DNA of 64,000 nt from Pseudanabaena galeata CCNP1313. GTDB lineage: Bacteria; Cyanobacteriota; Cyanobacteriia; Pseudanabaenales; Pseudanabaenaceae. Numbering within the stretch: position 1 is the first letter of the stretch; the number at the start of each line of letters is the position of its first letter. Shown piece by piece: positions 9,487 to 40,927 of the stretch. The notes beneath the pieces were generated by a model. It worked only from the letters and a program-made list of their open reading frames with translations, ran no database searches and was not told the origin of the DNA. The position numbers were made by a program, and so were the translations under genes. The DNA is taken from contig NZ_CP112874.1 of the NCBI RefSeq assembly GCF_029910235.1, positions 1,736,001 through 1,800,000 of the forward strand, given 5' to 3'.

Positions 9487-9966
9487 TTAAAATTAATTAT
9501 GCCTACCTTCTCACCAAAGGATTAGCGATGCACCGCCTCGCGCCGCACCGCAGGAGTATCTACTTAGAGTTTAGATGTGCTGTGATACAAATCACATTGC
9601 ATTGACTACAGATATCATAAGTTAATAAGCAGACATATGATTCTTACATCTGCTTTTTGCCTTAGTTTTTTGATAATCCTTCAAATAATTTGCAAACAAC
9701 AATATAAACAGATCAAAAATCAGGTCTTCTGCTCTATGGGCTGAGCAGTTATTACTTTCTTAGATGCATCAAAGTATTCTCAAAAAGTAACTATATAACA
9801 ATAGAAATAAATAGTTGCTACTTACAGCAATTACCGATCAAAAAACCACAACAATTTTTTTTGAAAGTTTTGAGAACCAACACTTTCAAAAAAATTGTTG
9901 GTTCAGGTTTGAGCGCAAAATGCTGTAAAGCTTATCTGTACAAGCCTAGGTAGTATAAAGAATACA
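9487..9966. other. intergenic region containing a family F element (9822-9928)
   Basis: AT-rich and without a convincing gene. At 9822-9928 is a family F element: its ends read TTACAGCA at the left and TGCTGTAA at the right, with ACCGATCAAAAAACC and GGTTTGAGCGCAAAA inside, around an inner inverted repeat of TTTTGAAAG type. Related sequences occur at 18929-19030 and near 40786. The short plus-strand frame at 9420-9605 is not credible as a gene. Confidence 0.55.
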
Positions 9967-11021: not shown

Positions 11022-12155
11022 ATGCAACCGCAGATCATTGTTATTAAAATTGGCACGTCTAGCCTTAGTGATCCCGAATCAGGAGATTTACAACTAGCGA
11101 CGATCGCCAAATTAGTTGAAGCGATCGTGCATCTACGACGGGAAGGACATAGCGTTGTCTTAGTTTCTTCGGGTGCGGTGGGCATTGGCTGTGGCAGGCT
11201 AGGGCTAAAACAACGTCCGCGCAAAATCTCCAAAAAGCAAGCCGTCGCAGCCGTAGGACAAGGGCGCTTAATCAGGATTTATGACGACTTTTTTGGCTCT
11301 TTGCAACAGCCCGTCGCTCAAGTTTTATTAACACGCGGCAACCTGATTCAGCGACAGCATTACATGAATGTCCATGCCACATTCCATGAATTACTGGAAA
11401 TGGGCGTAGTGCCAATTGTGAATGAGAATGACACGGTTGCTGTCGATGAATTAAAGTTTGGTGATAATGATACGCTATCGGCTCTAGTAGCTAGTCTGGT
11501 CGAGGCTGATTGGTTATTTCTATTAACCGATGTTGATCGCCTTTATTCCGATGACCCACGCCAAAATCCTGAAGCCAAGCCGATTGAGTTTGTGGAATAT
11601 TCAGAACTTCAAGAACTCAGACAAGCGATCGGTGAGAAACAAGCATTAGGCGCTCAAGGTGGTGGTACACAATGGGGAACTGGCGGCATGACCACAAAAC
11701 TTGATGCAGCTCGCATTGCCTCGGCGGCTGGAGTTCGTACAGTAATCACCAGAGGTGCTTTTCCCGATCGCCTGTCAGCGATTCTTCGTGGCGAGAATTT
11801 CGGTACGCAATTCGCGGCTCAACCGAAAACAGTGAATGCCCGTAAACGCTGGATTGCCTATGGAATGGTTCCCTTGGGCAAGTTGTTCTTAGACGATGGA
11901 GCCGTACAGGCGGTTATTCGCAAAGGGCGATCGCTCTTACCTGCGGGAATTACGCAAGTAGAAGGAAAGTTTGAGGCGAATGAGTCCGTAAGTTTGTGCG
12001 ATCGCGATGGCAAAGAAGTCGCGAGGGGTATCTCTAACTACAGCAGCAGTGATATCCTTCGCATTCTTGGTTCTCAATCAGAAGACATTCCTAAATTACT
12101 AGGCTTTGATGGCGAAGAGACAGTAATTCATCGAGACAATTTAGTGAGCCTTTAA
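11022..12155 (+). CDS. proB: glutamate 5-kinase
   Basis: A 377-residue cytoplasmic kinase that phosphorylates L-glutamate, the first step of proline synthesis. The amino-acid kinase fold covers about 1-260, with KIGTSSLS at the N-terminus, [11 protein letters not shown] near 49, the glutamate-binding [17 protein letters not shown] near 138 and [12 protein letters not shown] near 217. A C-terminal PUA domain (about 275-365) is present, as in the long bacterial form. ATG at 11022. proA is not adjacent. The stop codon is built into a terminator hairpin. Confidence 0.96.
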
Positions 12156-12194
12156 ATCAAAAAAAACGGCTACGCCGTTTTTTTTTGATTTAAA
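12150..12194. terminator. terminator hairpin of proB
   Basis: 21-bp perfect arms (12150-12170 and 12174-12194), loop TAC. It contains the proB TAA stop and an A8/T8 tract, so it fits a terminator. A second perfect hairpin (12228-12250 and 12254-12276, loop GAA) follows before the convergent DUF4255 gene. Confidence 0.7.
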
Positions 12195-12296
12195 GGCAAA
12201 GCCCTTAGGACTCTGCAATTTAATAAAGAACCGATTTTTGATGGCGCGGCGAAGCCGCGCCATCAAAAATCGGTTCCTTATTTTACGGTGAAGCCC

Positions 12297-13559
12297 TTAT
12301 GTAATAACTATTTTGGGACTATTGTACCAATTGTACGTTGGACTATCAGGATCATCATCTACACCCAACTTACTCTCAGCACCATCAATCCGTATCCGCA
12401 CCAGATACTCACCTGCCTTAATATTCGCAATTGGCATCTCAATGGTGGAAACAGTACTAGGCAAAGGAGGACGATCAAATAGATAGATGGATGGATTATC
12501 AGATGTCCATTCATTCAAGGCTAAGACTATTTTTTGTTTCTCCCGTACTAATACATCTAACTGAACTACAATTACCGCCGATCGCAAATTATCTTCGATC
12601 TCTTCTAACTGGGTCACAGATACATTCACAATCGTCGGACAGAGGACAAAAGGCATCACATTTGAGGCGATCGCATTAGTAATTAACGGTGAAGTGCTAC
12701 CGATTCGATGGATTACTTGCAAACTCTGCACTCCAGCTTGGATCTGGGGTAAATCCATATCCTCCAGAGAAAAAATAATTTCGCGAGCTTGTACGGAAGT
12801 AGGACTAATTACTAAATCCCCAACATGGATTTCTACTGTCTGACTTTGGAGGTTGCGCCCACGAATAATCATCACACTACCGATCACAATCGGCTCAAAT
12901 CGACTACCCTGAGCCACGACTTGCTCAATGTAGGGTGATGCAGGAAACGGAGCCAGCCCTGCGGGGGAAGCATCGCGAATTGGTAAGGCTCTCTGGAAGT
13001 TTTCCCGACCTTCGACGATTACCAGACAAGCACGGTAGGCGATCGATAATACATAGGGAACTTGATAAAATACTGACCAAGCCTTAGATAGATCCTCCAG
13101 TGAAATATCCACAGGCACAATATGAACCTGTTGAATCTGATCAGCAAGATCGGAAGCAGCTAGAAATGGGAATGTAGAATCATTGCAGGTAGAACGAATC
13201 AGTTCAGGTGTAAGAATTCGCTTGTCAACAAGGGTACTTACCACACTTCCCAAAACCCTCTGAGGTTGTAGTTCCGCATCATTGCCATAGCAACTCATCA
13301 TGTAAAAAAGATCGATCGCCACTTGACGATTAAGGGGATTTCCCTTGGTACGATTAGGAGTGGAGTCATAGTTAGCTAAAGAAGAATTACTGGTTACTTG
13401 ATACAAGAAAATATTTACTCCCACTTCTGGCGCACCCGTAGAAATTCCTCCTGGAGGTAAAGTGGTGGCTCGTGCTCCTTCAATATCCTGCTGAATCACT
13501 GTTTGCAAGACCCTTTGTAAAGTTGCCGTTACCGTCGCGATCGCTAAATAATTACTCAT
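12297..13559 (-). CDS. Pvc16-like DUF4255 protein of a contractile injection system
   Basis: A 420-residue protein. The N-terminal DUF4255/Pvc16_N domain (about 4-190) shows LFYMMSCYG near 85 and YQVPYVLSIAYR near 170, with an IPT/TIG-like beta domain after it (about 220-310). In extracellular contractile injection systems this family is encoded beside the sheath and is thought to cap or terminate the tail. The start ATG at 13559 overlaps the stop of the response regulator by 8 nt (ATGAGTAA), so translation is coupled; the ATG six bases upstream (13565) is less likely. It diverges from the sheath operon. The family call is firm; the cap role is from family knowledge. Confidence 0.85.
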   Translation of the reverse strand: MSNYLAIATVTATLQRVLQTVIQQDIEGARATTLPPGGISTGAPEVGVNIFLYQVTSNSSLANYDSTPNRTKGNPLNRQVAIDLFYMMSCYGNDAELQPQRVLGSVVSTLVDKRILTPELIRSTCNDSTFPFLAASDLADQIQQVHIVPVDISLEDLSKAWSVFYQVPYVLSIAYRACLVIVEGRENFQRALPIRDASPAGLAPFPASPYIEQVVAQGSRFEPIVIGSVMIIRGRNLQSQTVEIHVGDLVISPTSVQAREIIFSLEDMDLPQIQAGVQSLQVIHRIGSTSPLITNAIASNVMPFVLCPTIVNVSVTQLEEIEDNLRSAVIVVQLDVLVREKQKIVLALNEWTSDNPSIYLFDRPPLPSTVSTIEMPIANIKAGEYLVRIRIDGAESKLGVDDDPDSPTYNWYNSPKIVIT

Positions 13560-14250
13560 CTGCACTCACCAAACCTAATTTCAAAGCTCTGACGATCGCC
13601 TGTGTCCGACTAGCCACACCCAACTTCTCAAATACACTAGTGAGATGCGCTTTGACTGTAGCGATCGTCACATGTAGATATCGAGAGATATCTTCGTTAG
13701 AGGCTCCCTTAATCAACCAGTTCAATACCTCCTGTTCGCGATCGGTGAGATGGATAGTGGAATGTCCCTGTAGCGATCGCCCTGCATAGAAATGAAAAAT
13801 CCGAAAGAAACTCGTGGCAATATCGGGGGGCAAAAAGATTTCATCATTCATAACTGTCGAAATTGCCTCATAAAGTTGACTGCCAATGCGATCTTTCGCC
13901 ACATATCCTCTAGCTCCCAACTGCATCGATCTAAATACTAATTCATCTTCACGATGCGATGACAAAATTAAAACCTTGCCATGATAGTCTAACTTTTTAA
14001 GATCCATCAATACTTTTAACCCGCTATCTTCGGGTAATTTTAAATCGAGTTTGACATCCAAAAGAATTAAAGAAGGCTTCTGCTCGACTACTAGTTTAAT
14101 CGCTTGAACACAAGAAGTTGCTTCTCCGACAATCTTAAACTGAAGATAACAATCATCACTATAAAAACTCAGTAATGTATGTAAACCCCGACGAAAATCA
14201 GAGTCATCTTCTACCAATAAAACCGATACTATTTGAGCCGTTGTTGTCAT
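13552..14250 (-). CDS. LuxR/NarL-type response regulator coupled to the injection-system gene
   Basis: A 232-residue regulator with an N-terminal receiver (about 9-130) and a C-terminal LuxR-type HTH (about 165-230, LTDREQEVLNWLIKGASN). The phospho-acceptor is the Asp in LILLDVK (about residue 60), with LSSHRE and GYVAKD downstream as the usual switch positions. No histidine kinase lies next to it. It overlaps the DUF4255 gene by 8 nt and diverges from the sheath gene across a 404-bp gap, so it is a likely regulator of this injection-system locus. That link is inferred from position only. Confidence 0.88.
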   Translation of the reverse strand: MTTTAQIVSVLLVEDDSDFRRGLHTLLSFYSDDCYLQFKIVGEATSCVQAIKLVVEQKPSLILLDVKLDLKLPEDSGLKVLMDLKKLDYHGKVLILSSHREDELVFRSMQLGARGYVAKDRIGSQLYEAISTVMNDEIFLPPDIATSFFRIFHFYAGRSLQGHSTIHLTDREQEVLNWLIKGASNEDISRYLHVTIATVKAHLTSVFEKLGVASRTQAIVRALKLGLVSADE

Positions 14251-14654
14251 AGATCAGTGGTCATCGATCATTGATTTTTAGCAATTCTTACTCCCTTCCC
14301 AGTGAAGAATTATACGTTGCGGCGCAACGCGCCGCAACGCTAATTATTGATTTTTGATGTATATTTCTTTGGTGGGAAGAGAGTAACAGATCTCTTTTTA
14401 ATTCTTAGCAATTGATTTGTAGTTATAGCTATATCCATTTCAGTTAAGACATAAACCCAAAAGAGAGTTGTGGCGCATAGCGCCGCAACTCTCTTTTGGG
14501 TTTTGGGTTTTTCTTAACATAATTGTCTACCGCTATAACTTCAAGAGCTTTAGAGAATCTCATCCTTACTTAGAAGTATAGACTAAAGTCTAATAACCCT
14601 TAATTTCGATCATCCCTACTGTATACGTCTATAGACATAGTTAAAGGGTGGCAT
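14251..14654. promoter_or_regulatory. divergent control region of the injection-system locus
   Basis: 404 bp between the response regulator and the sheath gene. It holds a GC-rich palindrome at 14313-14336 (GTTGCGGCGCAACGCGCC type), a near-perfect hairpin at about 14453-14502 (AACCCAAAAGAGAGTTG arms) and a purine-rich ribosome site, AAAGGGTGG, 4 bp before the sheath ATG. The region must contain the two divergent promoters, but I cannot place -10/-35 boxes with confidence. Confidence 0.5.
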
Positions 14655-16364
14655 ATGGCACTAGACTACTTCGCCCCGGGCGTATACGTCGAAGAGGTTG
14701 ATAAAGGCAGTCGTCCCATTGAAGGCATCAGCCTCAGTGTGGCGGGCTTTATCGGATTTACCGAAGACGTTCGCGGTGATGCTGATCTGTTTAAACCAAT
14801 GATGGTTACATCATGGGATCAGTATCGTGAATACTTTGCAGCTCCTGGTTCTGATGGTTACACCGACTTCGATGCTTACTTGCCCTTCGCTGTTAATGGT
14901 TGGTTTGTCAATGGCGGTGGACGCTGCTGGGTAACGAGCATTGGCACAAAACTGCCTGGATCTGAGCCTCCAGCCCCTGAAGCAACCGCACTTCGCATTG
15001 GCACATCAAATAACAAGCCCACCTTGATGTTTAACATCAAGCCAGCCGATGCTTCTGAGAGCCAGTTAGCGTTACCTTCAACGGGCGATCGCATCAAAGT
15101 CATCATTCAAGAAAGCACTCCCAAGCCATTACCCGAAGACGCTCCTGCCGATGCCGAGCCACCCTTAAATACTGGTGAATTCTTCAACGTTGTTGTTGTC
15201 CAAGGCGGACAAGAATTGGAGAAATACGAACATGTCTCGATGAATCCACAGGTTGCGCCCGATGTTGCTGACTATGTAGTAACGGCGATCGCTGATTCTG
15301 AATATGTCACCATCGCCGACATTTCTACCAGCGGACAACCACTCTCTCGTCGTCCCGCTAACGGAGCTTATGAGATTGCGCCACCTCCTTACATTTCCAC
15401 CGTTGATCGCTTTGCGCGTGACTTGCTAGGACAAAGAGACGATCGCACTGGCATTCAAGGCATGTTTGAAATCGATGAAACAGCGATGATTGCTTGCCCG
15501 GACCTTATGCGCGTCTATGAAGCTGGTCTGATCGACATCGATCAAGTACATGGGGTCATGGAAATGATGCTCAGCATGTGCGAAAACTCCTTCCCAGGGC
15601 CTGCCTTCCGCATGGCAGTGATTGATCCCCCACCGATCAAGCCCTCCAAAGGCATGGAAGCTGTACCACCCGATCGCCAAAAACCTCAAGACGTAGCCCA
15701 ATGGTTGAGCATGTTCAACCGTCGCTCCATGTTTGGCGCACTCTATTACCCTTGGATCAAAGTCGCAAACCCTCGCAAAGGCGGCAAGCCATCCTACGTT
15801 CCTCCTTGCGGTCATGTCATGGGTCTATGGTGTCGCACTGACCAATCACGCGGTATCTTCAAGGCTCCCGCCAACGACACTCCTAGAGGTGTGCTTGGCT
15901 TAGCCTACGAAACCAACATGCGCGAGCAAGAAATGCTCAACCCCATCGGTATTAACTGCATTCGTAACTTTGCTAGCTACAATCGCGGCTTCAAGGTATG
16001 GGGCGCACGTACCTTGGTCGAGCCAGACAACATTCAATGGCGCTACATCAGTGTCCGCCGTCTGATTAGCTATATTGAGAAATCAATTGAAATTGGGACT
16101 CAATGGGTGGTATTTGAGCCTAACGATACTGACCTATGGGCAAGAGTAACTCGTACTGTCAGTAACTTCTTAGAAGGACTTTGGCGGAATGGGGCTTTAT
16201 TTGGCGGCGCATCCTCAGAAGCGTTTTATGTCAAATGTGATGCCACCCTCAATACCCATGAAACGATGATGATGGGTCGGCTATACATTGAGGTCGGTAT
16301 TTGTCCTGTCCGTCCTGCTGAATTTGTGATCTTCCGCGTCAGTCAGTGGTCGCCTAACAGCTAA
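14655..16364 (+). CDS. contractile tail sheath protein
   Basis: A 569-residue phage-tail-sheath-like protein of the contractile injection system type. The N-terminus, YFAPGVYVEEVDKGSRPIEG, is the standard start of the family. The C-terminal conserved sheath domain (about 440-565) includes NPIGINCIRNF, GFKVWGARTL and RRLISYIEKSIEIG. The sheath surrounds the tube and contracts to drive it through membranes. Related cyanobacterial proteins belong to thylakoid-anchored systems. It heads a plus-strand run with three tube-like genes and an assembly protein. No capsid, portal or terminase gene is present, so this is not a prophage tail. Confidence 0.95.
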   Translation: MALDYFAPGVYVEEVDKGSRPIEGISLSVAGFIGFTEDVRGDADLFKPMMVTSWDQYREYFAAPGSDGYTDFDAYLPFAVNGWFVNGGGRCWVTSIGTKLPGSEPPAPEATALRIGTSNNKPTLMFNIKPADASESQLALPSTGDRIKVIIQESTPKPLPEDAPADAEPPLNTGEFFNVVVVQGGQELEKYEHVSMNPQVAPDVADYVVTAIADSEYVTIADISTSGQPLSRRPANGAYEIAPPPYISTVDRFARDLLGQRDDRTGIQGMFEIDETAMIACPDLMRVYEAGLIDIDQVHGVMEMMLSMCENSFPGPAFRMAVIDPPPIKPSKGMEAVPPDRQKPQDVAQWLSMFNRRSMFGALYYPWIKVANPRKGGKPSYVPPCGHVMGLWCRTDQSRGIFKAPANDTPRGVLGLAYETNMREQEMLNPIGINCIRNFASYNRGFKVWGARTLVEPDNIQWRYISVRRLISYIEKSIEIGTQWVVFEPNDTDLWARVTRTVSNFLEGLWRNGALFGGASSEAFYVKCDATLNTHETMMMGRLYIEVGICPVRPAEFVIFRVSQWSPNS

Positions 16365-16371
16365 TTATCTA

Positions 16372-16404
16372 ATAAGAAGAACATCCATAGGATGTTCTTC
16401 TTAT
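16372..16404. terminator. hairpin after the sheath gene
   Basis: 15-bp perfect arms (16372-16386 and 16390-16404) with a 3-base loop, 8 bp after the sheath stop. A second near-perfect hairpin (about 16422-16457, TTTTTTGTGGAG arms) follows. These could lower read-through from sheath to tube genes or stabilise the sheath mRNA. Confidence 0.55.
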
Positions 16405-16580
16405 AGACTCGCAGTGAAAGATTTTTTGTGGAGCGGCTTAGCCACTCCACAAAAAATTGTTTCTTTATTAGATTTTGCTTTTTTAAGATTTGTGCTGTGA
16501 TTCTTACAGATTTATGGCTTTAGATTTTAAAATAGTTAACAATCAGCACAGACCTATAACTCAGATTTCAAGGAGGAAGA

Positions 16581-17054
16581 ATGGCTGAACTTATACCAAT
16601 TCCTACTAGTCGATACTATGTAGAATTTGATGGACTGACTGACAAGTTGATTAAAAGTGTTTCTGAAGTTACCTTTACAGGGCAAACCGCAGGACATGAA
16701 AAGCCTCTAGCCTCAACCAAAGGTGGTAAGACCATTTGGCAGAGTACGTCAGCAGGTTTTGAAGAAAACCCCAATGTCACCATTGAAGTCTATGTCACCG
16801 AAGGCGACATGGACTTTTACAATTGGATGTTAGCAACTATGCCCAAGAGTGAAGGGGGACAAGGTAAATGGTCTTCCAGCCGTAAGAACGGATCAATCGT
16901 TGCTTACGATAGTGAAGATAATGAAGCAATTCGTTGGAGTTTAACTAATTGTTGGATTAAGTCTTACAAGGTCAGCGACTTTAATTCTGAAAGTAAGGAT
17001 CTGGCTGTTGAGACCTTTGAAATTATCGCCGAGCAAATCAACCGCGTTAAGTAG
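16581..17054 (+). CDS. tail tube protein 1 (T4 gp19-like)
   Basis: A 157-residue protein of the phage T4 gp19/eCIS inner tube family. It opens PIPTSRYYVEFDGL, has the central GGKTIWQSTSAGF loop and NVTIEVYVTEGDMDFYNW, and ends with VETFEIIAEQINRV, the terminal strand pattern of the family. Hexameric rings of such proteins stack to form the tube inside the sheath. An ideal AAGGAGGAAG Shine-Dalgarno lies 4 bp before the ATG, suggesting high expression. It is paralogous to the next gene. Confidence 0.92.
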   Translation: MAELIPIPTSRYYVEFDGLTDKLIKSVSEVTFTGQTAGHEKPLASTKGGKTIWQSTSAGFEENPNVTIEVYVTEGDMDFYNWMLATMPKSEGGQGKWSSSRKNGSIVAYDSEDNEAIRWSLTNCWIKSYKVSDFNSESKDLAVETFEIIAEQINRVK

Positions 17055-17135
17055 AGAGATCTACTGACATGTGAGTTGATTTTAAATTTTTTGGTTTTGG
17101 TTTTGATATAGAACTTAGGATGAGGTCAATCAACT

Positions 17136-17609
17136 ATGGCAAAAGGTGAAATTTTAGCCTGCTCTAAATACTACTTTAACTTATCGGGTTTGGATGACCT
17201 AGTTGTTAAAAGCGTAGGGGGTATTGGTTCAACTCTGCAAACCGCAGGGGACAGTAAATCCTATGGAGTATCCAAGAGTGGTAAGTCAGTTATTCAAGCA
17301 ACTGTCACAGGTACAAGCAATAGCAATATTACAGTTGAATTTGTCTGTACCCTTGGCGACGATCGCCTAATTAAATGGTACAGCGCCTCACATTCCGAAG
17401 CACTCGGTGGTGGTGGAACCCAAACTAAGGGTGAGCGCAAAACAGGTACGATCACTCTTTACAATCAAGGCGGCGAGGCTGCTGCAACTTGGGAATTAAC
17501 TGGGGTAATGCCTTCCAGCTATAAATCAACTAAGCTAGAAGCTGGTGCTGAGGGTCTAGCAACCGAGACGATCGAGTTTGTCTATGAATCTTTGCATCGC
17601 AAAACATAA
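17136..17609 (+). CDS. tail tube protein 2 (T4 gp19-like)
   Basis: A 157-residue paralogue of the preceding tube protein: SKYYFNLSGLDDLVVKSVGG at the N-terminus, SKSGKSVIQATVTG in the middle and ATETIEFVYESL at the end. Having more than one gp19-like protein is normal in extracellular contractile injection systems, where one forms the tube body and others the baseplate end. Which role this copy has cannot be read from sequence. It lies 81 bp after the first tube gene and 59 bp before the third; a short inverted repeat (GTATGAGTGG) follows its stop. Confidence 0.9.
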   Translation: MAKGEILACSKYYFNLSGLDDLVVKSVGGIGSTLQTAGDSKSYGVSKSGKSVIQATVTGTSNSNITVEFVCTLGDDRLIKWYSASHSEALGGGGTQTKGERKTGTITLYNQGGEAAATWELTGVMPSSYKSTKLEAGAEGLATETIEFVYESLHRKT

Positions 17610-17668
17610 AAGATGCGTATGAGTGGTGTTCTGCGCCACTCATACTAAATTTCCAGAAGGTAGGTTGT

Positions 17669-18160
17669 ATGTCAGAAGAACAGCAAATAGAATTTTTAGC
17701 TAAGTCTAAATTTTATGTAGAAATTACTTTACAGGGCAGTCTAGAACAAATTGATGGCTACTTTATGGAATGTAGCGGATTGTCTCGAAGTCAAGAAGCG
17801 ATTGAAATTGTTGAAGTTACTCCGCAAGTATGGGGGAGGAGTGGTTCGACAAAAGGACGGGTTATCCGTACAAAGCTTCCAGGAAATGTCAAAAGTGAGA
17901 ATATTACGCTCAAACAAGGATTGAATATTTCCATGACCATGTGGAAATGGTTAAAAGCAGTGGAAGATGGTAACTGGGCGCAACAACTACGAGATGGTGA
18001 TATCACTATTTATGACCAAGCTTCAATAGAAAAAGCAAGGTTTCGATTTAATGGCGCTTGGCCGATGCGTTACAAAATTTCCGAATTTAAAGCTGATGCT
18101 AGCGAATTTGCGATTACTGAGGTAGAGTTATGCGTTAGTGACTTTTTACGGATTAATTAA
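17669..18160 (+). CDS. tail tube protein 3 / tube initiator (T4 gp19-like)
   Basis: A 163-residue gp19-family protein, more diverged than the first two: FYVEITLQGSLEQIDGYFMECSGL read in two parts, LPGNVKSENITLKQGL, and TEVELCVSDFLRI at the end. The GYF..CSGL element and the ITLKQGL/MWKWL block are typical of tube-initiator or baseplate-proximal gp19 paralogues (Pvc5/Afp5-like). It is preceded by AGAAGGTAGG 7 bp before the ATG. It is followed after 29 bp by the assembly protein gene. Confidence 0.88.
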   Translation: MSEEQQIEFLAKSKFYVEITLQGSLEQIDGYFMECSGLSRSQEAIEIVEVTPQVWGRSGSTKGRVIRTKLPGNVKSENITLKQGLNISMTMWKWLKAVEDGNWAQQLRDGDITIYDQASIEKARFRFNGAWPMRYKISEFKADASEFAITEVELCVSDFLRIN

Positions 18161-18189
18161 TAGATTAACTAAACACATATGGTTTAAAT

Positions 18190-18489
18190 ATGATTCAAAC
18201 AGAGTTTGAATTTACGCTACCCAAGGGCTACGTAGATGGTGATGGGAATCTACATCGTAAAGGTGTAATGCGACTATCAAGGGCAATCGACGAGATTACA
18301 CCGATGCGAGATCCTCGTGTTAGGAATAATCCTGCTTACGCAACAGTAATTATTTTGTCTAGGGTAATTACAAAATTAGGTGGGTTAGAAGAGATCAGTT
18401 CAATGGTCATCGAAAATTTATTTGCCATTGATCTTAGTTATTTGCAAAAGTTTTATCGTCAGATTAATGAACTAGAAGATTCTGAGTAG
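18190..18489 (+). CDS. tail assembly protein of the injection system
   Basis: A 99-residue protein resembling the small phage tail assembly proteins found after tube genes in contractile injection clusters: an N-terminal TLPKGYVDGDGNLHRKG, then VMRLSRAIDEI, DPRVRNNPAY and a helical C-terminus, FAIDLSYLQKFYRQIN. In phages, proteins at this position act as assembly chaperones or tape-measure partners. The role here is inferred from position and likeness. It is the last plus-strand gene of this cluster; baseplate and spike genes do not follow. Confidence 0.75.
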   Translation: MIQTEFEFTLPKGYVDGDGNLHRKGVMRLSRAIDEITPMRDPRVRNNPAYATVIILSRVITKLGGLEEISSMVIENLFAIDLSYLQKFYRQINELEDSE

Positions 18490-18928: not shown

Positions 18929-19030
18929 ACAGCACTTTGCGCTCAAACCCGAACCAAAAATTTTGTAAAAGTGTTGCTTCGCAACACTTTTACAAAATTC
19001 TTATGGTTCCTTTGATCGGTAATAGCTGTA
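18929..19030. repeat. Family F element, copy 2
   Basis: It begins ACAGCACTTTGCGCTCAAACC and ends GGTTCCTTTGATCGGTAATAGCTGTA, the inverted counterpart of the copy at 9822-9928. In the middle is a perfect hairpin, TTTTGTAAAAGTGTTGC-TTC-GCAACACTTTTACAAAA in two arms. It ends exactly where the stop codon of the WD40 gene begins (19031). Confidence 0.6.
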
Positions 19031-22000
19031 TTACAGATCAACTGCTCCTAATGCTTTAAGTGTAGATTTTTGAGCAGCAGTTAATCCCTTGATCCTAGCA
19101 ATATTCATATCTTCATAGGGTTTAGGAATTTTCAATGATTGGAGCCTTTTGCCAGATTGCAAATCCCAAAGTCTAGTCACTCCATCCTCACTTCCATTAG
19201 CTAAAATCTGTCCATCAGCACTGAAAATCACATCTCCCATATAGCCAATATCTAATTTTTCTTTTAAATTGTTGAGGTACTGATTAGTCTGCAAACACCA
19301 GAGCTTTACCTCGGCGGCATATCCTCCAAAGGCAAGGATTGATAATTTAGGATTTAAGGCTATTGTCCAGACTGGGAATTGGCTGGGGAGAGTGCTTACA
19401 CAAAATCCTGTTGTTAGATTCCAGAACTTAAGAGAGTGATCCATACTGCCACTAATTAATATGTCATCTTGACTAAAAGCTAAACTTTCGATGCGATCGC
19501 TATGTTCTGATAGTGTTATTAAACATTCCTGCGATCGCAAATCCCAAATTTTAATCATGCCATCCCAACTACCACTAGCAAGGATTTCAACCTTGGGATG
19601 GATCGCTAGAGCTTGGACAGGGCTATGATGACCATGCAGAGTATTTAAGCATTTTGAAGTTGGGAGATGCCAAAGTTTGATGGTTTGGTCACCACTTCCA
19701 GAAGCTAAGATTTCACCATTAGCAGTAAAAGCAACAAATCTTACCCAAGCGGAATGCCCTTGGAGAATTTGCGTGCAGGTTCCATTTTTGACATTAAAGA
19801 TCTTGATGGTATGGTCATAATTACCACAGGCAAAGGTTTGCTGGTCAGGGCTAAAGGCAACTTGCATCACTCCAGATGTGCCGAGATCAAAATTTCTCAA
19901 ACATTTTGCATTCTGAGCATCCCAAACCCTCACGCTCTGCTCTTCATAGCTAAAGGAAAAGAGAAGCTTATTGTCAGGACTAAAGGCAACAGGTTTAGTA
20001 GCTTTATGATATCCCCGAATCGTTCTGATACATTGACCTGTATCTACATCCCACAACTTCACAATCCGATCATCACTACCACTAACTAAAGTTTTCGCAT
20101 CGGGACTAAAGGTCACTGACCAAATGCGATTTTTGTGACCATATAAGGTTCTAATTACTTCGCCTGTATCTACTGACCAAAGCTTCACAGTTTCATCATC
20201 ACCTGCACTCACCAGCATTTGACCATCGGCACTAAAAGCAATCGACCAAATCTGTTTTTGATGTCCTGCGATCGCTTTCACGATTTTGCCAGTATGAATA
20301 TCCCAAATCTTGACAAGGCAATCTTCTCCAGCGCTGGCAATCTGTCCATCGGAGCGATCGCTTTGTGGCGCAAAGGCAACAGAGTAGACAGCATTAGTAT
20401 CAACAATTGTGCGAACACATTCTCCAGTTAATACACTCCATAGTTTAATGGTGCGATCCAAGCTGCAACTAGCAATCATTTGCCCATCAGGACTAAAGGC
20501 GACCGATCGCACGATCTGCTCATGTCCCTCTAGGGTCGTCATGCATTTGCCCGTTGCGACTTCGGTGAGTTTGACCGTGCGATCGCCACCACCACTGGCT
20601 ATCAGCAGATCGTCAGGGCTAAAGGCAATACTGGCTACCCCAAGTGCATGGGCTTCTATCGAAAGTAAACATGCTCCTGTATTCACGTTCCACAACTTCA
20701 CCATGCGATCGAGACCTCCACTAGCAAGCATTTGCCCATCCTTGCTAAATGCTAGAGAAAATATAAATTCACTATGAGCAGGAGTTTTAAGCAGTTGACT
20801 ACCATCAGCAACTCGCCAAAGATAAATCCAGCCCCTTACGTCACTAGTTGCTATAATCTTGCCATCGGGACTGAAGGCTGTCGCTATCACACTACTAAAA
20901 GTCACTCTAAAAGCCGATCTGGCAAGATCGCAGTTAGTAAAGTTAACTTGAGGAAGTTCCACTTCTCTGAGATCAGCCTGCCAAATGGATAAATTAGAGA
21001 AGTCATAACCAGTTAGATCAATATTTAGACAACAGAGCAGGTTAACAAGATTGCCACCTGCATATCCTTGCTTTGGTACAGTCTCCGCTTTCAGTCGAGT
21101 TAGAGTTGTGGCGATTGCTTGATAACCTAACTTATCGGCAATGGGCTGAAGGATAAACCGAATTTGAGCATCACGAATATAGTCTTTCGCTGTGGCTTCG
21201 ATGAGGGCATGACTATGGAGTAGATTTATCTTCTGTTCGGTGAAGTTAATCTCCTGACAGATCTTGTCAATGAATTGATAATTGACATATTCCATCACTA
21301 CAGGCTGGAGTGTAAACCCATTAGCCATAACTTCTATGAGCGATCGCTTTTTCAATAATTCCAGAGTCACAATCAGTTTTTGCTTTGATTCTATGGACAG
21401 CAAATTCTCTTTTAGGGCAATTACTGATATTGGCTCACGGGCGATCGCTAACCAGTACATTACTTCTTGCTCAGACTCCGATAGTCTCAAAAACTGACGT
21501 TGGAGCAGATCTTGGATATCTCCAAAAGTCAGCCCCCCCTCTCGCATTAAGGCTAGCATTTGCGAGACATCGCCACCCAGTAAATCGCGAATCCCTGCGG
21601 CGACAATTTTTAGAGCTAGAGGATTTCCCGCATAGTGGGTAATGATTTCCTGCCATTCGGCATCGTTTGCCCTCATAGATTCTCTCGCCAATATCTGCAA
21701 GCCATCCTGTTGTGATAAGCCCGATAAAGGCAGCGATCGCACTGAGCTTCCCATCAATCTCGATAATTCTGGCGGTGCTTCGCGACTGGTAACCACTAAG
21801 CAGCTTTGATGATTACGTTCCCCAATATATCTAATCAAATCACCATAGCCTTCATAACCAGATCGATAGCCAGAGAGATAGCCAGAGCGATCGCTCAGAA
21901 TCGACTCCCAGTTATCAATCACTAACAAACATCGCCGCGCATCTAGATAGCGCATCAGCAGGTCAAGTTGTGCGGGTAAATTATCTGGTAGTTCGAGCGG

Positions 22001-22480
22001 TTGAGGGTGAGAGAGAAATTGCAAAATATCGGTGAGGATGCTTGCAAAAGATGGGGCATTACGTAGCGATCGCCAGATCGTAAATTCAAATTCTTCTTTT
22101 AATTGATGGGCGAGTTGTGATGCTAGGGAAGTTTTGCCCATGCCGCCCATGCCCAAAATGGTGACAATTTGATAGCGATCGCTGATTACCCATTGCTCTA
22201 GCTGTTGCAGTTCAGTAGTACGTCCATAGAAATTACCTACCTGTTGAGCCTCTTTTAAATCAACTTGCGGAGTCTTTGCGATCGCCTCTTGCCAATCTAT
22301 ACCCAAAAATTGACAAAGCTGTATGAAGGTATCTTGGCGAATGTCATCCCCTTGAAAGAAACGTTTGGCGACACCAATCGATCCCGCTTTTTCTAAGACT
22401 TGGCTAGCAGTCTGGGACAGTCCAAGCTGACGTAATTTATCCTTGAGTATTTGCTGTCCTCGTTTAGACGCTTTTGCCAT
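19031..22480 (-). CDS. HTH-NB-ARC-WD40 STAND protein
   Basis: A 1149-residue STAND-type NTPase. An N-terminal helical, HTH-like region (1-75) precedes an NB-ARC ATPase (about 85-420) with Walker A GMGGMGKTSLA and Walker B CLLVIDNWES. A short pentapeptide-like linker (about 490-520) leads into 14 WD40 repeats (about 525-1125), enough for two seven-bladed propellers. The design is that of an NLR: a sensor array, an NTPase switch and an N-terminal output or adaptor. Cyanobacteria have many such proteins; some STAND proteins defend against phage. This one stands alone without an obvious effector, so its output is unknown. ATG at 22480. Confidence 0.9.
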   Translation of the reverse strand: MAKASKRGQQILKDKLRQLGLSQTASQVLEKAGSIGVAKRFFQGDDIRQDTFIQLCQFLGIDWQEAIAKTPQVDLKEAQQVGNFYGRTTELQQLEQWVISDRYQIVTILGMGGMGKTSLASQLAHQLKEEFEFTIWRSLRNAPSFASILTDILQFLSHPQPLELPDNLPAQLDLLMRYLDARRCLLVIDNWESILSDRSGYLSGYRSGYEGYGDLIRYIGERNHQSCLVVTSREAPPELSRLMGSSVRSLPLSGLSQQDGLQILARESMRANDAEWQEIITHYAGNPLALKIVAAGIRDLLGGDVSQMLALMREGGLTFGDIQDLLQRQFLRLSESEQEVMYWLAIAREPISVIALKENLLSIESKQKLIVTLELLKKRSLIEVMANGFTLQPVVMEYVNYQFIDKICQEINFTEQKINLLHSHALIEATAKDYIRDAQIRFILQPIADKLGYQAIATTLTRLKAETVPKQGYAGGNLVNLLCCLNIDLTGYDFSNLSIWQADLREVELPQVNFTNCDLARSAFRVTFSSVIATAFSPDGKIIATSDVRGWIYLWRVADGSQLLKTPAHSEFIFSLAFSKDGQMLASGGLDRMVKLWNVNTGACLLSIEAHALGVASIAFSPDDLLIASGGGDRTVKLTEVATGKCMTTLEGHEQIVRSVAFSPDGQMIASCSLDRTIKLWSVLTGECVRTIVDTNAVYSVAFAPQSDRSDGQIASAGEDCLVKIWDIHTGKIVKAIAGHQKQIWSIAFSADGQMLVSAGDDETVKLWSVDTGEVIRTLYGHKNRIWSVTFSPDAKTLVSGSDDRIVKLWDVDTGQCIRTIRGYHKATKPVAFSPDNKLLFSFSYEEQSVRVWDAQNAKCLRNFDLGTSGVMQVAFSPDQQTFACGNYDHTIKIFNVKNGTCTQILQGHSAWVRFVAFTANGEILASGSGDQTIKLWHLPTSKCLNTLHGHHSPVQALAIHPKVEILASGSWDGMIKIWDLRSQECLITLSEHSDRIESLAFSQDDILISGSMDHSLKFWNLTTGFCVSTLPSQFPVWTIALNPKLSILAFGGYAAEVKLWCLQTNQYLNNLKEKLDIGYMGDVIFSADGQILANGSEDGVTRLWDLQSGKRLQSLKIPKPYEDMNIARIKGLTAAQKSTLKALGAVDL

Positions 22481-36782: not shown

Positions 36783-39700
36783 TCAGTAGTTTCTTGGTTC
36801 CTTCAAGTCCAACTCAAAACTGAAAGTACTGCCAACACCAATCTCGCTGACCACCGTAATTTCACCGCCCATTTTTTTAACAAGGTCTTGACTAATTGCC
36901 AAACCCAATCCAGCACCTTGAAATTGCAATTCACGTTTGCCGACCTGCTCGAAGGGTAAGAATATACTTTCAATGTCTGTTGCGGCAATACCCACACCTG
37001 TATCGGCGATCGCAAATCGCATTAGTTCTTTGGTGTTGCCATTACCATCGTCGGACTGAATTTTTGAGACTGAAAAGGTGACAGTACCTGTAGAAGTAAA
37101 CTTGATAGCATTGCCAAGTAAATTGAGTAGAACTTGTCGCAATCGCATTTCGTCAGCATAGATATTATCTGGCAGATTGGGAGCGAAATGAGTTGTAAGG
37201 TTTAGACTCTTTTCAGCAGCTTTGATAGAAATCATATCTACAGTGATTTGCAGAAAATTTGCCAGAGGTAGCAAACTTGGCTCAATTGCTATCTTTTTGG
37301 ATTCAATTCTGGAGATATCGAGGAGATCTTGAATTAGAGAGAAAAGATGCTCTCCAGATTGATAAATTATCTCCGCGAATTCTTTGATATCTGGTGCTAT
37401 CTCTGTCTGTGATTTTAGAAGTTGTGAAAAGCCTAATATTGAATTTAAGGGAGTACGAAACTCATGGCTCATATTTCCAAGAAATCTGCATTTAGCCAGA
37501 TTTGCAGCTTCAGAGGCAAGTATTGCTTCTGCTAATTCTTGGTTTTGGGCGATGAGTTGTTGTTTTTGGACTTTGCGTTCCGTGATGTCTTCAATTGCAA
37601 TCACAATCATCTTACCAATATTGGCTTGATAGAGTTCAGAGGCATTGAGTAACATGGTGCGCGTACCGAGGTGCGTAAAATCTTGGGTGATTTCATAATC
37701 TTGGACGGAAATACTATGGGCGAGGATGTCATTGAGGAGCGATCGCAGTTGGGAAATATTCCAATCTCCTTGCCCTAGAGCATAAATCGACTGTCCCTCT
37801 GTCTGACTGGGCAACATTTGGAAAATTTGATAAAAAGCGAGGTTTGCAGTAATCACTCGCAAATCTGAGTCTAGCACTAGCAGGGGCTGACGCAGAGTTT
37901 CTACGATCGCTTTGGAATAGTTGCGTGAGAATTCTAATTCTAGAGAATTTTTTTTAATCGTATCAATATCAATCAAACTAATCACGACCCCATCAATGAC
38001 GTTTTCAATGGTGCGATAGGGACGAATTCGCAAACTATACCAATGCTGTGATCGATCTTGCACTTCCTGCTCGAAGGGAATCAGGGTAATGATTACCGCA
38101 GACGCTAATCCAAGTAAATCTGCACCATCAATATTAGTTTGAATATCGCTAAAAGGTCGCCCCACATCAGTGGGAATCAGATTAAATACCTGCTCCGCCA
38201 TAGGTGTAAAGCGTCTGATGTGCAAATCACCAGATAGCATCAAAATCGCGATATTTACGCTACTTAGCAGGTTTTGCATATCGTTATTGGACTGCTGTAG
38301 CTGGAGATTGCGACTGCGTAGTTCGTCATTGACAGTGCTTAGCTCTTCATTTGTTGCTTGGACTTCTTCTTTGGCGGTTTCTAGTTCTTCATTGGCACTC
38401 TGTAATTCTTCATTACTAGACAAAAACTCTTCACTGGCGACTCTTAGTTCTTGATTAGTGGATTCATGGGTTTCGACAATTGTTCGCAAATATTTTTTTG
38501 TGCTTTCTAATTCATTTGTGAGTCGTACCACAGCTAATTCTGCTTCGGTCTGCCGCACTTTGCGCGACTTGGCTTGAGGTATTAGTGCTAAAGCTGCTGC
38601 GGAAGGTTTGGGTCGGCTCTCAAATAGCACCAAAAAATAGCGATCGCTATTGATTTTTAATGGAATCACATCCAGCTTGACTAGCACTCCCTGAGACATC
38701 TCGATCCCATCTTTGGTAAACGGGAGATCGTGTTGCTTGGCATTGTGAATCGCCGATCGCAGTTCTAGCCTTAATTCTGTCCGCGCCATTTTTAGTAAAT
38801 TGAGACTTGCCTTGCCTGATGGCTGTTCCAAGTAAGGACTAGTCTGCCCACGAAACTGTAAAATTTCTAGCTCTTCATTAATTGTCACGCCCACAGGTGT
38901 ATAGCGACTCAACACCACCCGATCAGCGAGTTGTTCTAGATCGCTATCCGTCGCCGACTCACTAAGTTTAGAAATATTTACAGGTAAAGTTTCATAGGTG
39001 CTTTTAACAAAATTAAAATTCATCCGTGCAGGCGTAATTTTACGTTTATAAATGCGTTGTTTTTTATCGATGATCGCAAATAAATCCGTAGCATTACCGA
39101 TGCCTTCAGAACTTCCTAACATCAGAAATCCATCGGGGTTAAGTGCATAGTGAAAAACTGGCATAATCTTTTTCTGAAGCACAGGTTCCAGATAGATCAG
39201 CATATTCCGACAACTGATCAGATCTAGCCGTGAGAATGGCGGATCGCTAGTCAAGTTTTGCCGCGCAAATACACAGCAATCCCTTACCAAACGCCCAATC
39301 TGATAACCGCCTTCTACGGGTATAAAAAAGCGACTCAGCCGTTCTGGAGAGACTTCTTTCAACAAATTCTCTTCGTAAAATCCGATCCTTGCCTTGCTAA
39401 TGACTACTTCACTAATATCCGTTGCAAAAATTTTAATTTGATGTCGGATTGGGCGATCGTCAAAGAATTCCATTAGACAGATCGCGATTGAATAAACTTC
39501 CTCACCCGTGGAGCAACCTGCAACCCAGATCCGAATCGGTACATCGGATGGCTTGTTTTGGCAAATCACAGGAAATGCTAACTCCTTCAACGCGACAAAG
39601 GAGTCGGGTTCTCGAAAGAAACTGGTAACATTTATTAAGATATCGTGGTATAAACTCTCAACTTCGTTGGGATTCTCTTGTAAATATGTGCTGTAAACCT

Positions 39701-40547
39701 CCATATTTTTTAGACTGATCAGTCCCATCCGTCGCGCTATTCTGCGCTCTATAGTACCTTTTTTGTAATTGCTAAAATCTATACCCATTGCATTGTGTAG
39801 AAGCGCAAAAATCTTCGACAAAGCCTCTGAATTCTCAGTAAATGCTGGTGCAGAACTATCATCAAACTCTTCGTTCTCTTTTATATTGAGTTCAAAATCA
39901 CTCTCGCGATTGCCTTGGCTGATGTTGACCAATTCTGCCGCAATCTCGGCAGGTGATAACACAAAATCAACATAGCCCGAAGCGATCGCAATCATCGGCA
40001 TGGTTTGAAATTCAGCAGATTCTAAATCTTGAGCAAAGGTAATCCCACCCACCGACTTGATCGCACCTAGCCCCGCCGTTCCATCTTCATTACTTCCCGA
40101 CAGGACGATCGCGATCGACTGACTACCGCGATCAGCAGCTAGGGAGCTAAAGAATCCATCGATCGCCATGTACTTCCCTCTGACCTGACGACGTGGCTCA
40201 CACTTTAGTAAGCCCTGATCGAGGGTCATCAAAGTATTGGGGGGAATCACATAGACATTATTTGGGACAATCCTCATGCCTTCCTGCGCTTGATTGACAG
40301 GCATCCGCGTCGTTTTTTGCAGAATTTCGCTTAACCGACTGTCATGATCGGGCGCTAAATGTTGGATGAGAACAAAGCCCATACCAATATCGTCTGGTAA
40401 ATTCCTTAATAATTGCGTAAATGCTTGTAATCCACCTGCGGACGCACCAATAGCGGCGATCGCGAAACATTCCTGAGAATTTTGTTGCGATTCTTGCGAT
40501 AAATCCGAAGAGTTAGTGGTTCTCAGGTTTCGTTCGGAATCGGGCAT
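36783..40547 (-). CDS. CheB-CheR-PAS-histidine kinase fusion
   Basis: A 1254-residue signalling protein. CheB methylesterase (about 28-215) has GASAGGLQAF (Ser), IQHLAPDHDSRL (His) and SGSNEDGTAGL (Asp). CheR methyltransferase (about 245-490) has the SAM site VAGCSTGEEVYSIA and CRNMLIYLE. Then come a long coiled coil (about 660-745), two PAS-like regions and a histidine kinase (about 1010-1250) with H-box GNMSHEFRTPLNS, N-box LRQVLLNLLGNAIKF, and ADTGVGIA/GAGLGLAIS. No receiver domain and no chemotaxis operon are adjacent, so it is probably a stand-alone hybrid regulator. ATG at 40547. Confidence 0.92.
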   Translation of the reverse strand: MPDSERNLRTTNSSDLSQESQQNSQECFAIAAIGASAGGLQAFTQLLRNLPDDIGMGFVLIQHLAPDHDSRLSEILQKTTRMPVNQAQEGMRIVPNNVYVIPPNTLMTLDQGLLKCEPRRQVRGKYMAIDGFFSSLAADRGSQSIAIVLSGSNEDGTAGLGAIKSVGGITFAQDLESAEFQTMPMIAIASGYVDFVLSPAEIAAELVNISQGNRESDFELNIKENEEFDDSSAPAFTENSEALSKIFALLHNAMGIDFSNYKKGTIERRIARRMGLISLKNMEVYSTYLQENPNEVESLYHDILINVTSFFREPDSFVALKELAFPVICQNKPSDVPIRIWVAGCSTGEEVYSIAICLMEFFDDRPIRHQIKIFATDISEVVISKARIGFYEENLLKEVSPERLSRFFIPVEGGYQIGRLVRDCCVFARQNLTSDPPFSRLDLISCRNMLIYLEPVLQKKIMPVFHYALNPDGFLMLGSSEGIGNATDLFAIIDKKQRIYKRKITPARMNFNFVKSTYETLPVNISKLSESATDSDLEQLADRVVLSRYTPVGVTINEELEILQFRGQTSPYLEQPSGKASLNLLKMARTELRLELRSAIHNAKQHDLPFTKDGIEMSQGVLVKLDVIPLKINSDRYFLVLFESRPKPSAAALALIPQAKSRKVRQTEAELAVVRLTNELESTKKYLRTIVETHESTNQELRVASEEFLSSNEELQSANEELETAKEEVQATNEELSTVNDELRSRNLQLQQSNNDMQNLLSSVNIAILMLSGDLHIRRFTPMAEQVFNLIPTDVGRPFSDIQTNIDGADLLGLASAVIITLIPFEQEVQDRSQHWYSLRIRPYRTIENVIDGVVISLIDIDTIKKNSLELEFSRNYSKAIVETLRQPLLVLDSDLRVITANLAFYQIFQMLPSQTEGQSIYALGQGDWNISQLRSLLNDILAHSISVQDYEITQDFTHLGTRTMLLNASELYQANIGKMIVIAIEDITERKVQKQQLIAQNQELAEAILASEAANLAKCRFLGNMSHEFRTPLNSILGFSQLLKSQTEIAPDIKEFAEIIYQSGEHLFSLIQDLLDISRIESKKIAIEPSLLPLANFLQITVDMISIKAAEKSLNLTTHFAPNLPDNIYADEMRLRQVLLNLLGNAIKFTSTGTVTFSVSKIQSDDGNGNTKELMRFAIADTGVGIAATDIESIFLPFEQVGKRELQFQGAGLGLAISQDLVKKMGGEITVVSEIGVGSTFSFELDLKEPRNY

Positions 40548-40927
40548 TACAACAACCTTTATTTCATGTAATTGTTATATTACTTTACCATTGAGGTCTC
40601 AGCAATTACGCAAGAGGTTTTGTTCGCTTCACCTTTGATAGCAAAGCACAACAAATGGCTCCGCCATTTGTTGTCAACAATTCTCATTATGAAACCAATT
40701 TTGGAGTTTCTAGCGCCTTCGGCGCTGGAAACTCCAAAATTAGTTTTTTGAAAGCGTTGTAAAGCAGCGCTTTCAAAAATTTTCTTGGTTTGGGTTTGAG
40801 CGCAAAGTGCTGTAAGGGACTTACACAAAATAGCTGAACCCAAAAACAATGTGGCGGGCTAAGCCCGCCACATTGTTTTTGGGTTTTATAGGGATCATTT
40901 TTTCCTTGGAGTTCCCTAAATAGTCTC
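40548..40927. other. intergenic region with hairpins and family F fragment
   Basis: No credible gene. It holds a CAAATGGCTCCGCCATTTG hairpin near 40651, a GAGTTTCTAGCGCC hairpin near 40706, a GAAAGCGTTGTAAAGCAGCGCTTTC near-palindrome around 40753, a family F right end (TTTGAGCGCAAAGTGCTGTAA) ending about 40815, and a perfect 24-bp-arm hairpin at 40837-40885. Confidence 0.6.

What the first reader, a model, noticed from the sequence alone, without database searches (positions are those of the whole stretch)
12297..18489. Partial contractile injection system locus without baseplate
Sheath, three gp19-like tube paralogues, a small assembly protein and a DUF4255 (Pvc16-like) protein lie together, but no baseplate, spike, LysM or AAA ATPase gene and no capsid gene follows. 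The flanks are unrelated genes. Cyanobacterial thylakoid-anchored systems are known to be split; this looks like the structural half of one. The remaining half and any cargo should be elsewhere in the genome.
Basis: partly seen in the sequence, partly recalled or inferred. Interest (0 to 1): 0.65.

Follow-up and report, generated by a model that had tools for sequence, protein, structure and literature searches.

The report
A cyanobacterial molecular syringe in three pieces
This stretch holds one part of a phage-tail-like protein syringe whose other parts sit far away on the same chromosome; similar scattering is seen in other cyanobacteria, so such systems are easily overlooked by searches that expect one gene cluster.

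Summary
The rest lies on the same chromosome: AAA module 342 kb from the sheath, baseplate-spike-effector module 1.66 Mb away. Sheath and baseplate J occur in exactly the same 19 of 26 Pseudanabaena genomes, and together in 94 of the 106 class genomes (388 searched) that have either. In 12 of 22 few-contig genomes holding both they lie 124 kb or more apart; the linked/unlinked state needs 8 changes on a quick sheath tree. Thirteen genes tested from the three modules show purifying selection. 'Thylakoid-anchored' is not supported: sheath and baseplate J are nearest the cytoplasmic Streptomyces (IId) system, and two of three known anchor features are absent (third untested). Instead the baseplate module carries a bitopic protein (beta-sandwiches, membrane helix, propeller) whose cytosolic part shares a domain with Cis12: a candidate dock. 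A 14-bp palindrome, unique in the genome and invariant in 18 of 18 loci, is a probable operator before the sheath. No expression or particle data. New variant of a known kind.

The parts
12297..13565 (-). Pvc16-like (DUF4255) tail-terminator/cap gene, second gene of the leftward pair
   Evidence: PF14065 E 2.5e-35; in place in 17 of 18 relatives, the 18th contig cut
13552..14250 (-). Response regulator (REC plus LuxR/GerE HTH), overlapping the Pvc16 gene; probable regulator of the module
   Evidence: PF00072 3.5e-18, PF00196 1.9e-18; in place in 17 of 18 relatives, the 18th contig cut
14579..14592 (.). TAGACTAAAGTCTA palindrome, candidate operator, 62 nt before the sheath start
   Evidence: Invariant in 18 of 18 loci, the window included; only exact TAGACTNNAGTCTA in the 5.84-Mb genome; degenerate form before the sheath in 11 of 31 loci of other genera
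14655..16364 (+). Contractile sheath
   Evidence: PF17482, PF04984; PDB 8bky/9gtp 357 bits
16581..17054 (+). gp19-like tube protein a
   Evidence: PF06841 9.6e-22
17136..17609 (+). gp19-like tube protein b
   Evidence: PF06841 2e-17
17669..18160 (+). gp19-like tube protein c
   Evidence: PF06841 1.5e-27; TIGR02241 79 bits
18190..18489 (+). Small tail-assembly-like protein 1 (99 aa), probable paralogue of the 102-aa protein of module C
   Evidence: In place in 17 of 18 relatives, the 18th contig cut; two copies side by side in Kovacikia and Brasilonema both match it

Best explanation
The window locus is module A (sheath, tubes, cap, small assembly protein, response regulator) of a complete contractile injection system related to the Streptomyces (IId, 'cytoplasmic CIS') lineage and encoded in three unlinked chromosomal modules. 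Module C (C1:1405.8-1413 k) gives the Pvc15-like AAA ATPase, a second small assembly protein, DUF6760 and a bitopic membrane protein. Module B (C1:84.3-113 k) gives a fourth gp19, a 2254-aa repetitive disordered protein, a CIS_tube (PF19266) protein, VgrG, a DUF4280 (PAAR-position) protein, gp25, baseplate J, Cis12, a Cis13-like protein, sensor and bitopic membrane proteins, and an eCIS_core (DUF4157) effector. Shown by sequence: every structural part expected is there as an open frame; sheath, gp25, baseplate J and the AAA orthologue are single; sheath, baseplate J and AAA are inherited together although unlinked; 13 genes tested are under purifying selection. Inferred: the proteins assemble one particle in trans; the module A response regulator switches sheath/tube production through the palindrome at 14579; the particle is docked to a cell membrane by the beta-sandwich/TM/propeller proteins through the domain they share with Cis12, and fires there under stress, loaded with eCIS_core cargo (the last step by analogy only).
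For: Parts in three places. Order within modules conserved as far as the fetched stretches reach. Sheath and baseplate J in the same 19 of 26 genus genomes (Fisher 1.5e-6, not corrected for descent), AAA in 18 of those 19. Class: 99 sheath, 101 baseplate J, 94 both of 388. All three modules on one 125-kb plasmid in Pseudanabaena sp. ABRG5-3; homologous genes in one cluster in S. clavuligerus. dN/dS 0.01-0.19. IId-like sheath and baseplate. Operator. Shared domain of Cis12 and the bitopic proteins: hhalign 95.2%, 94.6%, 98.7%; models and Foldseek.
Against: No expression, particle or localisation data. One of the 19 (G017) has no AAA match at E <= 1e-60 and its sheath is split into two pieces. 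VgrG and its neighbours were not seen upstream of gp25 in G008, G014 and G017 although 3.7 kb or more was read, so some genomes may be split further. In the class five genomes have the sheath only and seven baseplate J only. The palindrome is not at modules B or C of Pseudanabaena, so common control of the modules is not shown. The propeller protein was detected after baseplate J in 36 of 62 named loci with enough sequence, so it may not be universal. Which membrane is unknown. The hhalign scores are single pairwise comparisons.
Confidence: 0.82

Rival explanations
1. Module A is a decaying remnant of a phage tail or of a CIS, no longer part of a machine.
For: Genes split from the rest; palindromic repeats in its spacers; a split sheath in one relative (G017); some class genomes with only one of the two genes, among them G204 and G215 with few contigs and 99% completeness.
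Against: Open frames with sheath dN/dS 0.010-0.025; exact co-occurrence with unlinked baseplate genes in the genus; 0 of 617 matching phage records cover 80% of the sheath; a scan of viral contigs with six exact peptide patterns, which finds close relatives only, gave none.
Confidence: 0.05
2. It is a thylakoid-anchored CIS (tCIS) of the Anabaena type whose operon was split.
For: Cyanobacterial host; a sister-genus genome (G005) has an Anabaena-like sheath; weak CIS13_fam (34.5 bits, cut-off 370) and CIS12_fam (47.4, cut-off 860) hits.
Against: Sheath and baseplate J are nearest the Streptomyces system; in the sheath tree three Anabaena-like rows are far away, on long branches; no strong membrane helix in 34 Cis13 homologues (own protein: one stretch at 1.74) and Cis12 of about 360 aa instead of 1100.
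Confidence: 0.08
3. The three loci encode two or more different machines that merely co-occur (for example a module B baseplate serving another tail).
For: Relatives G008 and G025 hold a second CIS with its own sheaths; class genomes with only sheath or only baseplate J exist.
Against: The window's genome has one sheath and one baseplate J, and the same genes stand together in linked genomes such as G208, G114, G168, G185, G262 and on plasmid ABRG53d.
Confidence: 0.05

Closest known systems
Streptomyces coelicolor cytoplasmic CIS (CIS-Sc, subtype IId; PMC10066040 and PMC12237407, passages seen)
   Same: Nearest solved sheath (8bky/9gtp) and baseplate J (9gtp); gene set and partial order shared with the S. 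clavuligerus plasmid cluster, including a LuxR-type regulator next to DUF4255; a membrane protein near the baseplate genes.
   Different: One cluster there, three unlinked modules here. No sequence similarity between the module B kinase-TM-PBP protein and the S. clavuligerus protein at the CisA position. Cis12 has an extra N-terminal beta-sandwich domain; extra sensor and propeller membrane proteins.
Anabaena thylakoid-anchored CIS (tCIS; PMC8894136, abstract and passages seen)
   Same: Cyanobacterial CIS with DUF4157-type cargo.
   Different: One cluster of 15 ORFs; Cis13 with a membrane helix, Cis12 with a 610-1100 extension, Cis19 crown. Our sheath is 161 bits to All3325 against 357 to Streptomyces.
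Roseiflexus/Deinococcota IId CIS (PMC12998442, passages seen)
   Same: Subtype IId lineage; a Deinococcus plasmid sheath is 39% identical.
   Different: Described as gene clusters; dispersal over contigs there is of draft MAGs.
Published eCIS catalogue (Geller et al., PMC8213781, passages seen)
   Same: LuxR/GerE regulator reported next to 25.8% of eCIS loci.
   Different: Their method groups genes within 12 kb and needs at least ten core genes; I expect none of our three modules alone to pass (inference).

Membership tests
Contractile injection system (eCIS superfamily) | Sheath, gp19 tube, gp25, VgrG spike, baseplate J, Tail_P2_I/Cis12, AAA ATPase, Pvc16 cap in one genome | tested here: met
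Contractile injection system (eCIS superfamily) | No phage head genes beside them | tested here: inconclusive
   Head genes were not searched by profile; none was recognised among the ORFs listed for the three loci
Contractile injection system (eCIS superfamily) | eCIS_core (DUF4157) cargo gene in the system | tested here: met
   PF13699 E 3.1e-32 in the 633-aa protein of module B
CIS subtype IId (Streptomyces-type cytoplasmic CIS) | Sheath and baseplate J nearest to the Streptomyces system among solved structures | tested here: met
CIS subtype IId (Streptomyces-type cytoplasmic CIS) | Place inside the IId clade in a formal tree | tested here: inconclusive
   quick tree: the cyanobacterial rows stand beside a group of S. 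clavuligerus, Deinococcus and the second systems of G008/G025; supports 89, long branches warned of; no IIa-c rows included
CIS subtype IId (Streptomyces-type cytoplasmic CIS) | CisA homologue (not universal: 75 of 120 genomes in PMC12237407) | tested here: not met
   BLASTP E 0.28 against the protein at the CisA position of S. clavuligerus, whose identity with CisA I did not test; an analogue by architecture exists (weak kinase hit, TM, PBP_like_2)
CIS subtype IId (Streptomyces-type cytoplasmic CIS) | Particles free in the cytoplasm until stress | not testable with these tools
   Needs cryo-tomography
Thylakoid-anchored CIS (Anabaena) | Transmembrane helix in Cis13 | tested here: not met
   By hydropathy only: 0 of 34 complete homologues reach a 19-residue mean of 2.2 (range 1.12-1.95); the own protein has one stretch at 1.74
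Thylakoid-anchored CIS (Anabaena) | Cis12 extension (residues 610-1100) | tested here: not met
   40 complete Cis12 homologues are 154-516 aa, median 358
Thylakoid-anchored CIS (Anabaena) | Cis19 crown protein | not tested
   No Cis19 sequence was used as query
Thylakoid-anchored CIS (Anabaena) | tCIS-type sheath | tested here: not met
   All3325 161 bits against 357 for Streptomyces; a sister-genus sheath (G005) scores 410 bits to All3325

The most novel reading that the evidence does not exclude
Cyanobacteria of many families carry a membrane-docked CIS that is stably run from scattered modules: the baseplate is held on a membrane by bitopic beta-sandwich/TM/propeller proteins that reuse a Cis12 domain (a docking mode distinct from CisA and from the tCIS anchors), while a response regulator bound to a dedicated palindrome releases sheath and tube production separately, so that sheath loading is the regulated step.
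Probability: 0.3. Interest if true: 0.8.

Novelty: new variant of a known kind. Interest (0 to 1): 0.6.

Why it matters
The CIS catalogue whose method I saw is built by looking for linked core genes (PMC8213781), so a lineage that scatters its genes would be undercounted or filed as incomplete. Outside the window's own family, 75 of 350 sampled cyanobacterial genomes hold this sheath and baseplate J pair (94 of 388 in all), often far apart. It also offers a natural test of whether such a machine can be assembled from independently regulated loci, and two concrete, testable parts: a probable operator and a candidate membrane dock.

Tried and rejected
Looked for the operator at modules B and C of Pseudanabaena: at two mismatches three scattered sites (in L105, L110, L126), not shared between genomes; the looser form gave one site inside an effector gene (L008) and one inside the 966-aa gene (L120); exact form elsewhere in the genome none. 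So I do not claim that the modules share this control. Aligned the divergent spacer of module C in 17 genomes: no comparable invariant block. Tried to make the kinase-TM-PBP protein a CisA homologue: no similarity to the S. clavuligerus protein at that position. Asked PDB sequences for relatives of the Pvc16 and Cis13-like proteins: none at E <= 1. Considered a conserved insertion site: module A follows proB in 3 (G000, G025, G016) of the 18 genomes in which both were found, so that site is local. Kovacikia minuta first looked like a single complete cluster, but its gp25 lies apart near transposase-like ORFs and its baseplate J is 124 kb from the sheath. Considered the giant module B protein as a tape measure: plausible by position, not tested.

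Rows dropped before counts: the sheath tree left out G333, G265 and G017 of the 25 linked genomes; the operator count used the 31 loci whose sheath start was readable, leaving out the Streptomyces, Deinococcus and duplicate ABRG5-3 records, and the regulator was scored by a tblastn hit over 60 bits; the neighbour counts used 62 and 38 of 80 named loci with enough flank; 57 of 94 genomes have the two genes on different contigs and, apart from G236 (listed with 20 contigs), come from assemblies that I did not score by contig number, so they say nothing on distance. The fourth gp19, the 70-aa and the kinase-like genes lie beyond the stretches fetched for the other Pseudanabaena genomes and were checked only in ABRG5-3. 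The degenerate operator form was chosen after seeing the sites, and some loci are near copies (G069/G050), so its Fisher value is optimistic. dS is above 1 in many pairs and saturated in two, so dN/dS is approximate. Fisher values for co-occurrence do not correct for descent.
Full report
WHAT IS THERE. Between proB (11022-12155) and a 112-aa ORF the window holds two divergent gene groups. Leftward: a LuxR-type response regulator (14250-13552) and, overlapping it, a Pvc16/DUF4255 gene (13565-12297). Rightward: sheath (14655-16364), three gp19 tube genes and a 99-aa small assembly-like protein (18190-18489). The window is C1:1736001-1800000 of a 5.84-Mb, six-contig assembly. Close named relatives are Pseudanabaena sp. 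ABRG5-3 (sheath 95% identical) and Pseudanabaena sp. SR411 (baseplate J 95%).

THE REST OF THE MACHINE. Whole-genome searches place gp25, baseplate J, the close AAA orthologue and the fourth gp19, each at one further place; the other parts were read as ORFs beside them. Module B, C1:84.3-113 k, reads leftward: 809-aa protein (weak kinase hit, TM, PBP_like_2), 70-aa protein, fourth gp19, a 2254-aa repetitive disordered protein, a CIS_tube (PF19266) protein, VgrG, DUF4280 (PAAR position), gp25, baseplate J (TIGR02243, 609 bits), Cis12 (Tail_P2_I; TIGR02242 116 bits), a Cis13-like protein (34.5 bits, far below the model's cut-off), a dCache-HAMP sensor and a 721-aa propeller membrane protein; at its far end a TPR gene, and rightward a pentapeptide gene, an eCIS_core (DUF4157) effector and a 449-aa neighbour. 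Module C, C1:1405.8-1413 k: pentapeptide protein, AAA ATPase (58% identical to the one beside the Kovacikia sheath), 73-aa protein, and divergently a 966-aa bitopic protein, a second small assembly protein and DUF6760. Distances: sheath to AAA 342 kb, AAA to baseplate J 1.31 Mb, sheath to baseplate J 1.66 Mb.

IS IT ONE SYSTEM? In the order (38 genomes) the strong sheath and strong baseplate J hits fall in exactly the same 19 of 26 genomes of the genus; the AAA orthologue is in 18 of these 19, not in G017. G007, of a sister genus and 85% complete, has baseplate J near a contig end without a sheath. Seen in the fetched stretches of the 19: sheath and two gp19 19, the other module A genes 18 (G031 cut); AAA 18, DUF6760 16; baseplate J, Cis12, Cis13, dCache and propeller 19; gp25 16; VgrG, the CIS_tube protein and the giant 13; DUF4280 9. 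Most misses are contig ends, but in G008, G014 and G017 the VgrG side was not found upstream of gp25. In Pseudanabaena sp. ABRG5-3 all three modules lie on one 125-kb plasmid, A and C 5 kb apart and B on the other side of a nif cluster. In S. clavuligerus the homologues form one plasmid cluster. Pairwise dN/dS between the window's genome and four relatives is 0.010-0.025 for the sheath and at most 0.19 for the 13 genes tested, with two saturated pairs.

HOW COMMON IS THE SPLIT? Of 388 genomes drawn from the class (all 38 of the own family among them), 99 have the sheath (E <= 1e-80), 101 baseplate J, 94 both. In 37 of the 94 the two share a contig: 25 within 53 kb, 12 at 124 kb or more; the other 57 have them on different contigs. 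In the 22 genomes listed with at most 10 contigs and both genes, 10 are within 53 kb and 12 are 124 kb to 1.9 Mb apart (shorter way round if circular). In 8 of the 10 such unlinked genomes outside Pseudanabaena the distant block starts at gp25, without VgrG in the stretch read; G126 takes the VgrG side along and G306 leaves gp25 behind. On a quick sheath tree of 53 rows the linked/unlinked label of 34 scored rows needs 8 changes (tree errors could lower this). G013 (1.29 Mb apart) and G032 (53 kb apart) have almost identical sheaths. Of 80 named loci fetched by baseplate J, 38 have 9.5 kb or more on both sides, and a sheath lies in that stretch in 1; linked genomes can have gaps up to 53 kb, so this is not a count of split systems. 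Five genomes have the sheath only and seven baseplate J only; several are incomplete, but G204 and G215 are listed at 99% and may hold decaying systems.

WHICH LINEAGE? Sheath: PDB 8bky/9gtp (S. coelicolor CIS, title) 357 bits, Anabaena All3325 161 bits. Baseplate J: 9gtp 377 bits, no Anabaena chain. An Anabaena-like sheath exists in a sister genus (G005, 410 bits to All3325), so both kinds occur in the family. Type IId eCIS have been noted in filamentous cyanobacteria before (PMC10020575, passages), so the lineage itself is not new. I found no report of its genes being unlinked (searches, listings only, open-access library only; passages of seven papers). The Geller catalogue groups genes within 12 kb and requires at least ten core genes (PMC8213781, passages).

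REGULATION. The spacer between regulator and sheath varies from 118 to 533 bases in 18 genomes, yet TAGACTAAAGTCTA is invariant in all 18, 62-65 bases before the sheath start. It is the only exact TAGACTNNAGTCTA in the genome. In other genera the looser TMGACNNNNGTCKA lies within 2 kb before the sheath in 11 of 31 loci, against at most 2 for the 59 other orders of the half-site letters; it is there in 10 of 14 loci with the regulator and 1 of 17 without (Fisher 3.5e-4; the form was chosen after seeing the sites). The exception, L154, has a regulator-like gene (39%) beside gp25 in its other module. In the plain genome-wide permutation test another palindrome (ATCGA half-site) was slightly more frequent (31 against 28). 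I infer that this is the regulator's operator; binding is untested. In Pseudanabaena only module A has it. In seven loci of other genera the regulator stands next to the kinase-like/TM/PBP gene, which may be its sensor.

A CANDIDATE DOCK. The propeller protein (modelled in Pseudanabaena sp. SR411, mean pLDDT 88.5, pTM 0.57) has, by my reading of its strands, three beta-sandwich regions (6-355), one helix at 361-378 and a WD40 propeller. A membrane helix passes my hydropathy threshold in 25 of 32 homologues. Its cytosolic part is homologous to that of the module C bitopic protein (hhalign 98.7%, 290 columns) and, over 85 columns, to the N-terminal domain of Cis12 (95.2%). The Cis12 model (mean pLDDT 72.3, domain 54-147 about 90) matches Streptomyces 9gtp and MSP/ASH/PapD-like domains; whole-model TM scores are low. 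S. clavuligerus Cis12 is only 222 aa and aligns from our residue 182 on, so the domain looks like an addition. I infer a docking chain from baseplate through Cis12 to a membrane; which membrane is unknown.

FUNCTION. By analogy with Streptomyces (cell death under stress, CisA-dependent firing; PMC10066040, PMC12237407, passages) and Anabaena (ghost cells; PMC8894136, passages), the likeliest role is a cell-internal, stress-triggered machine loaded with eCIS_core cargo. This step rests on analogy alone.

VERDICT. Not a fragment: a complete, maintained CIS in three pieces, of a IId-like lineage, with a probable dedicated operator and a candidate membrane dock.

Noticed in passing
window 12150-12282, 14417-14544, 18929-19030 (also near 1440-1530, 9823-9929, 40744-40813): MITE- or REP-like palindromes forming strong hairpins sit in the spacers around and inside module A, and some recur elsewhere in the window; they may explain the differing spacer lengths and could be substrates for rearrangement.
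   Followed up: partly
L013 12401-19165 (C1:96.4-103.2 k): A 2254-aa disordered protein with 68 [ILVMA]Q[RKT] motifs (shuffled mean 10, maximum 20), 42 of them IQR; giant counterparts in ABRG5-3 (2531 aa, 51 motifs) and Kovacikia (2316 aa, 40 motifs). The two effector-region proteins carry 7 and 5 (shuffled means 2.4 and 1.4, reached by the best of 500 shuffles). Possibly a tape measure or cargo-binding filament.
   Followed up: partly
L044 (G025:C47), L045 (G008:C6): Two Pseudanabaena genomes hold a second CIS with at least two sheath genes close together; the G025 one is also nearest to the Streptomyces sheath (350 bits).
   Followed up: partly
L046/L041 (G017:C68): In G017 the sheath matches as two separate pieces and no AAA orthologue was found: a decaying system or a sequencing error.
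   Followed up: no
L008 16649-17998: 449-aa neighbour of the eCIS_core effector, without a Pfam hit but with a similar N-terminus; its C-terminal part has a His-Gly and a later Ala-Cys that recall clan CD peptidases (by eye, from recall only).
   Followed up: no
window 36783-40547: CheB-CheR-PAS-histidine kinase fusion of 1254 aa.
   Followed up: no
window 19031-22480: 1149-aa protein with a P-loop-like motif (by eye) and a long WD40 array, to the right of module A; whether it accompanies module A in relatives was not tested.
   Followed up: no
NZ_AP017564.1 (ABRG53d): The ABRG5-3 plasmid that carries all three CIS modules also carries a nif cluster.
   Followed up: no
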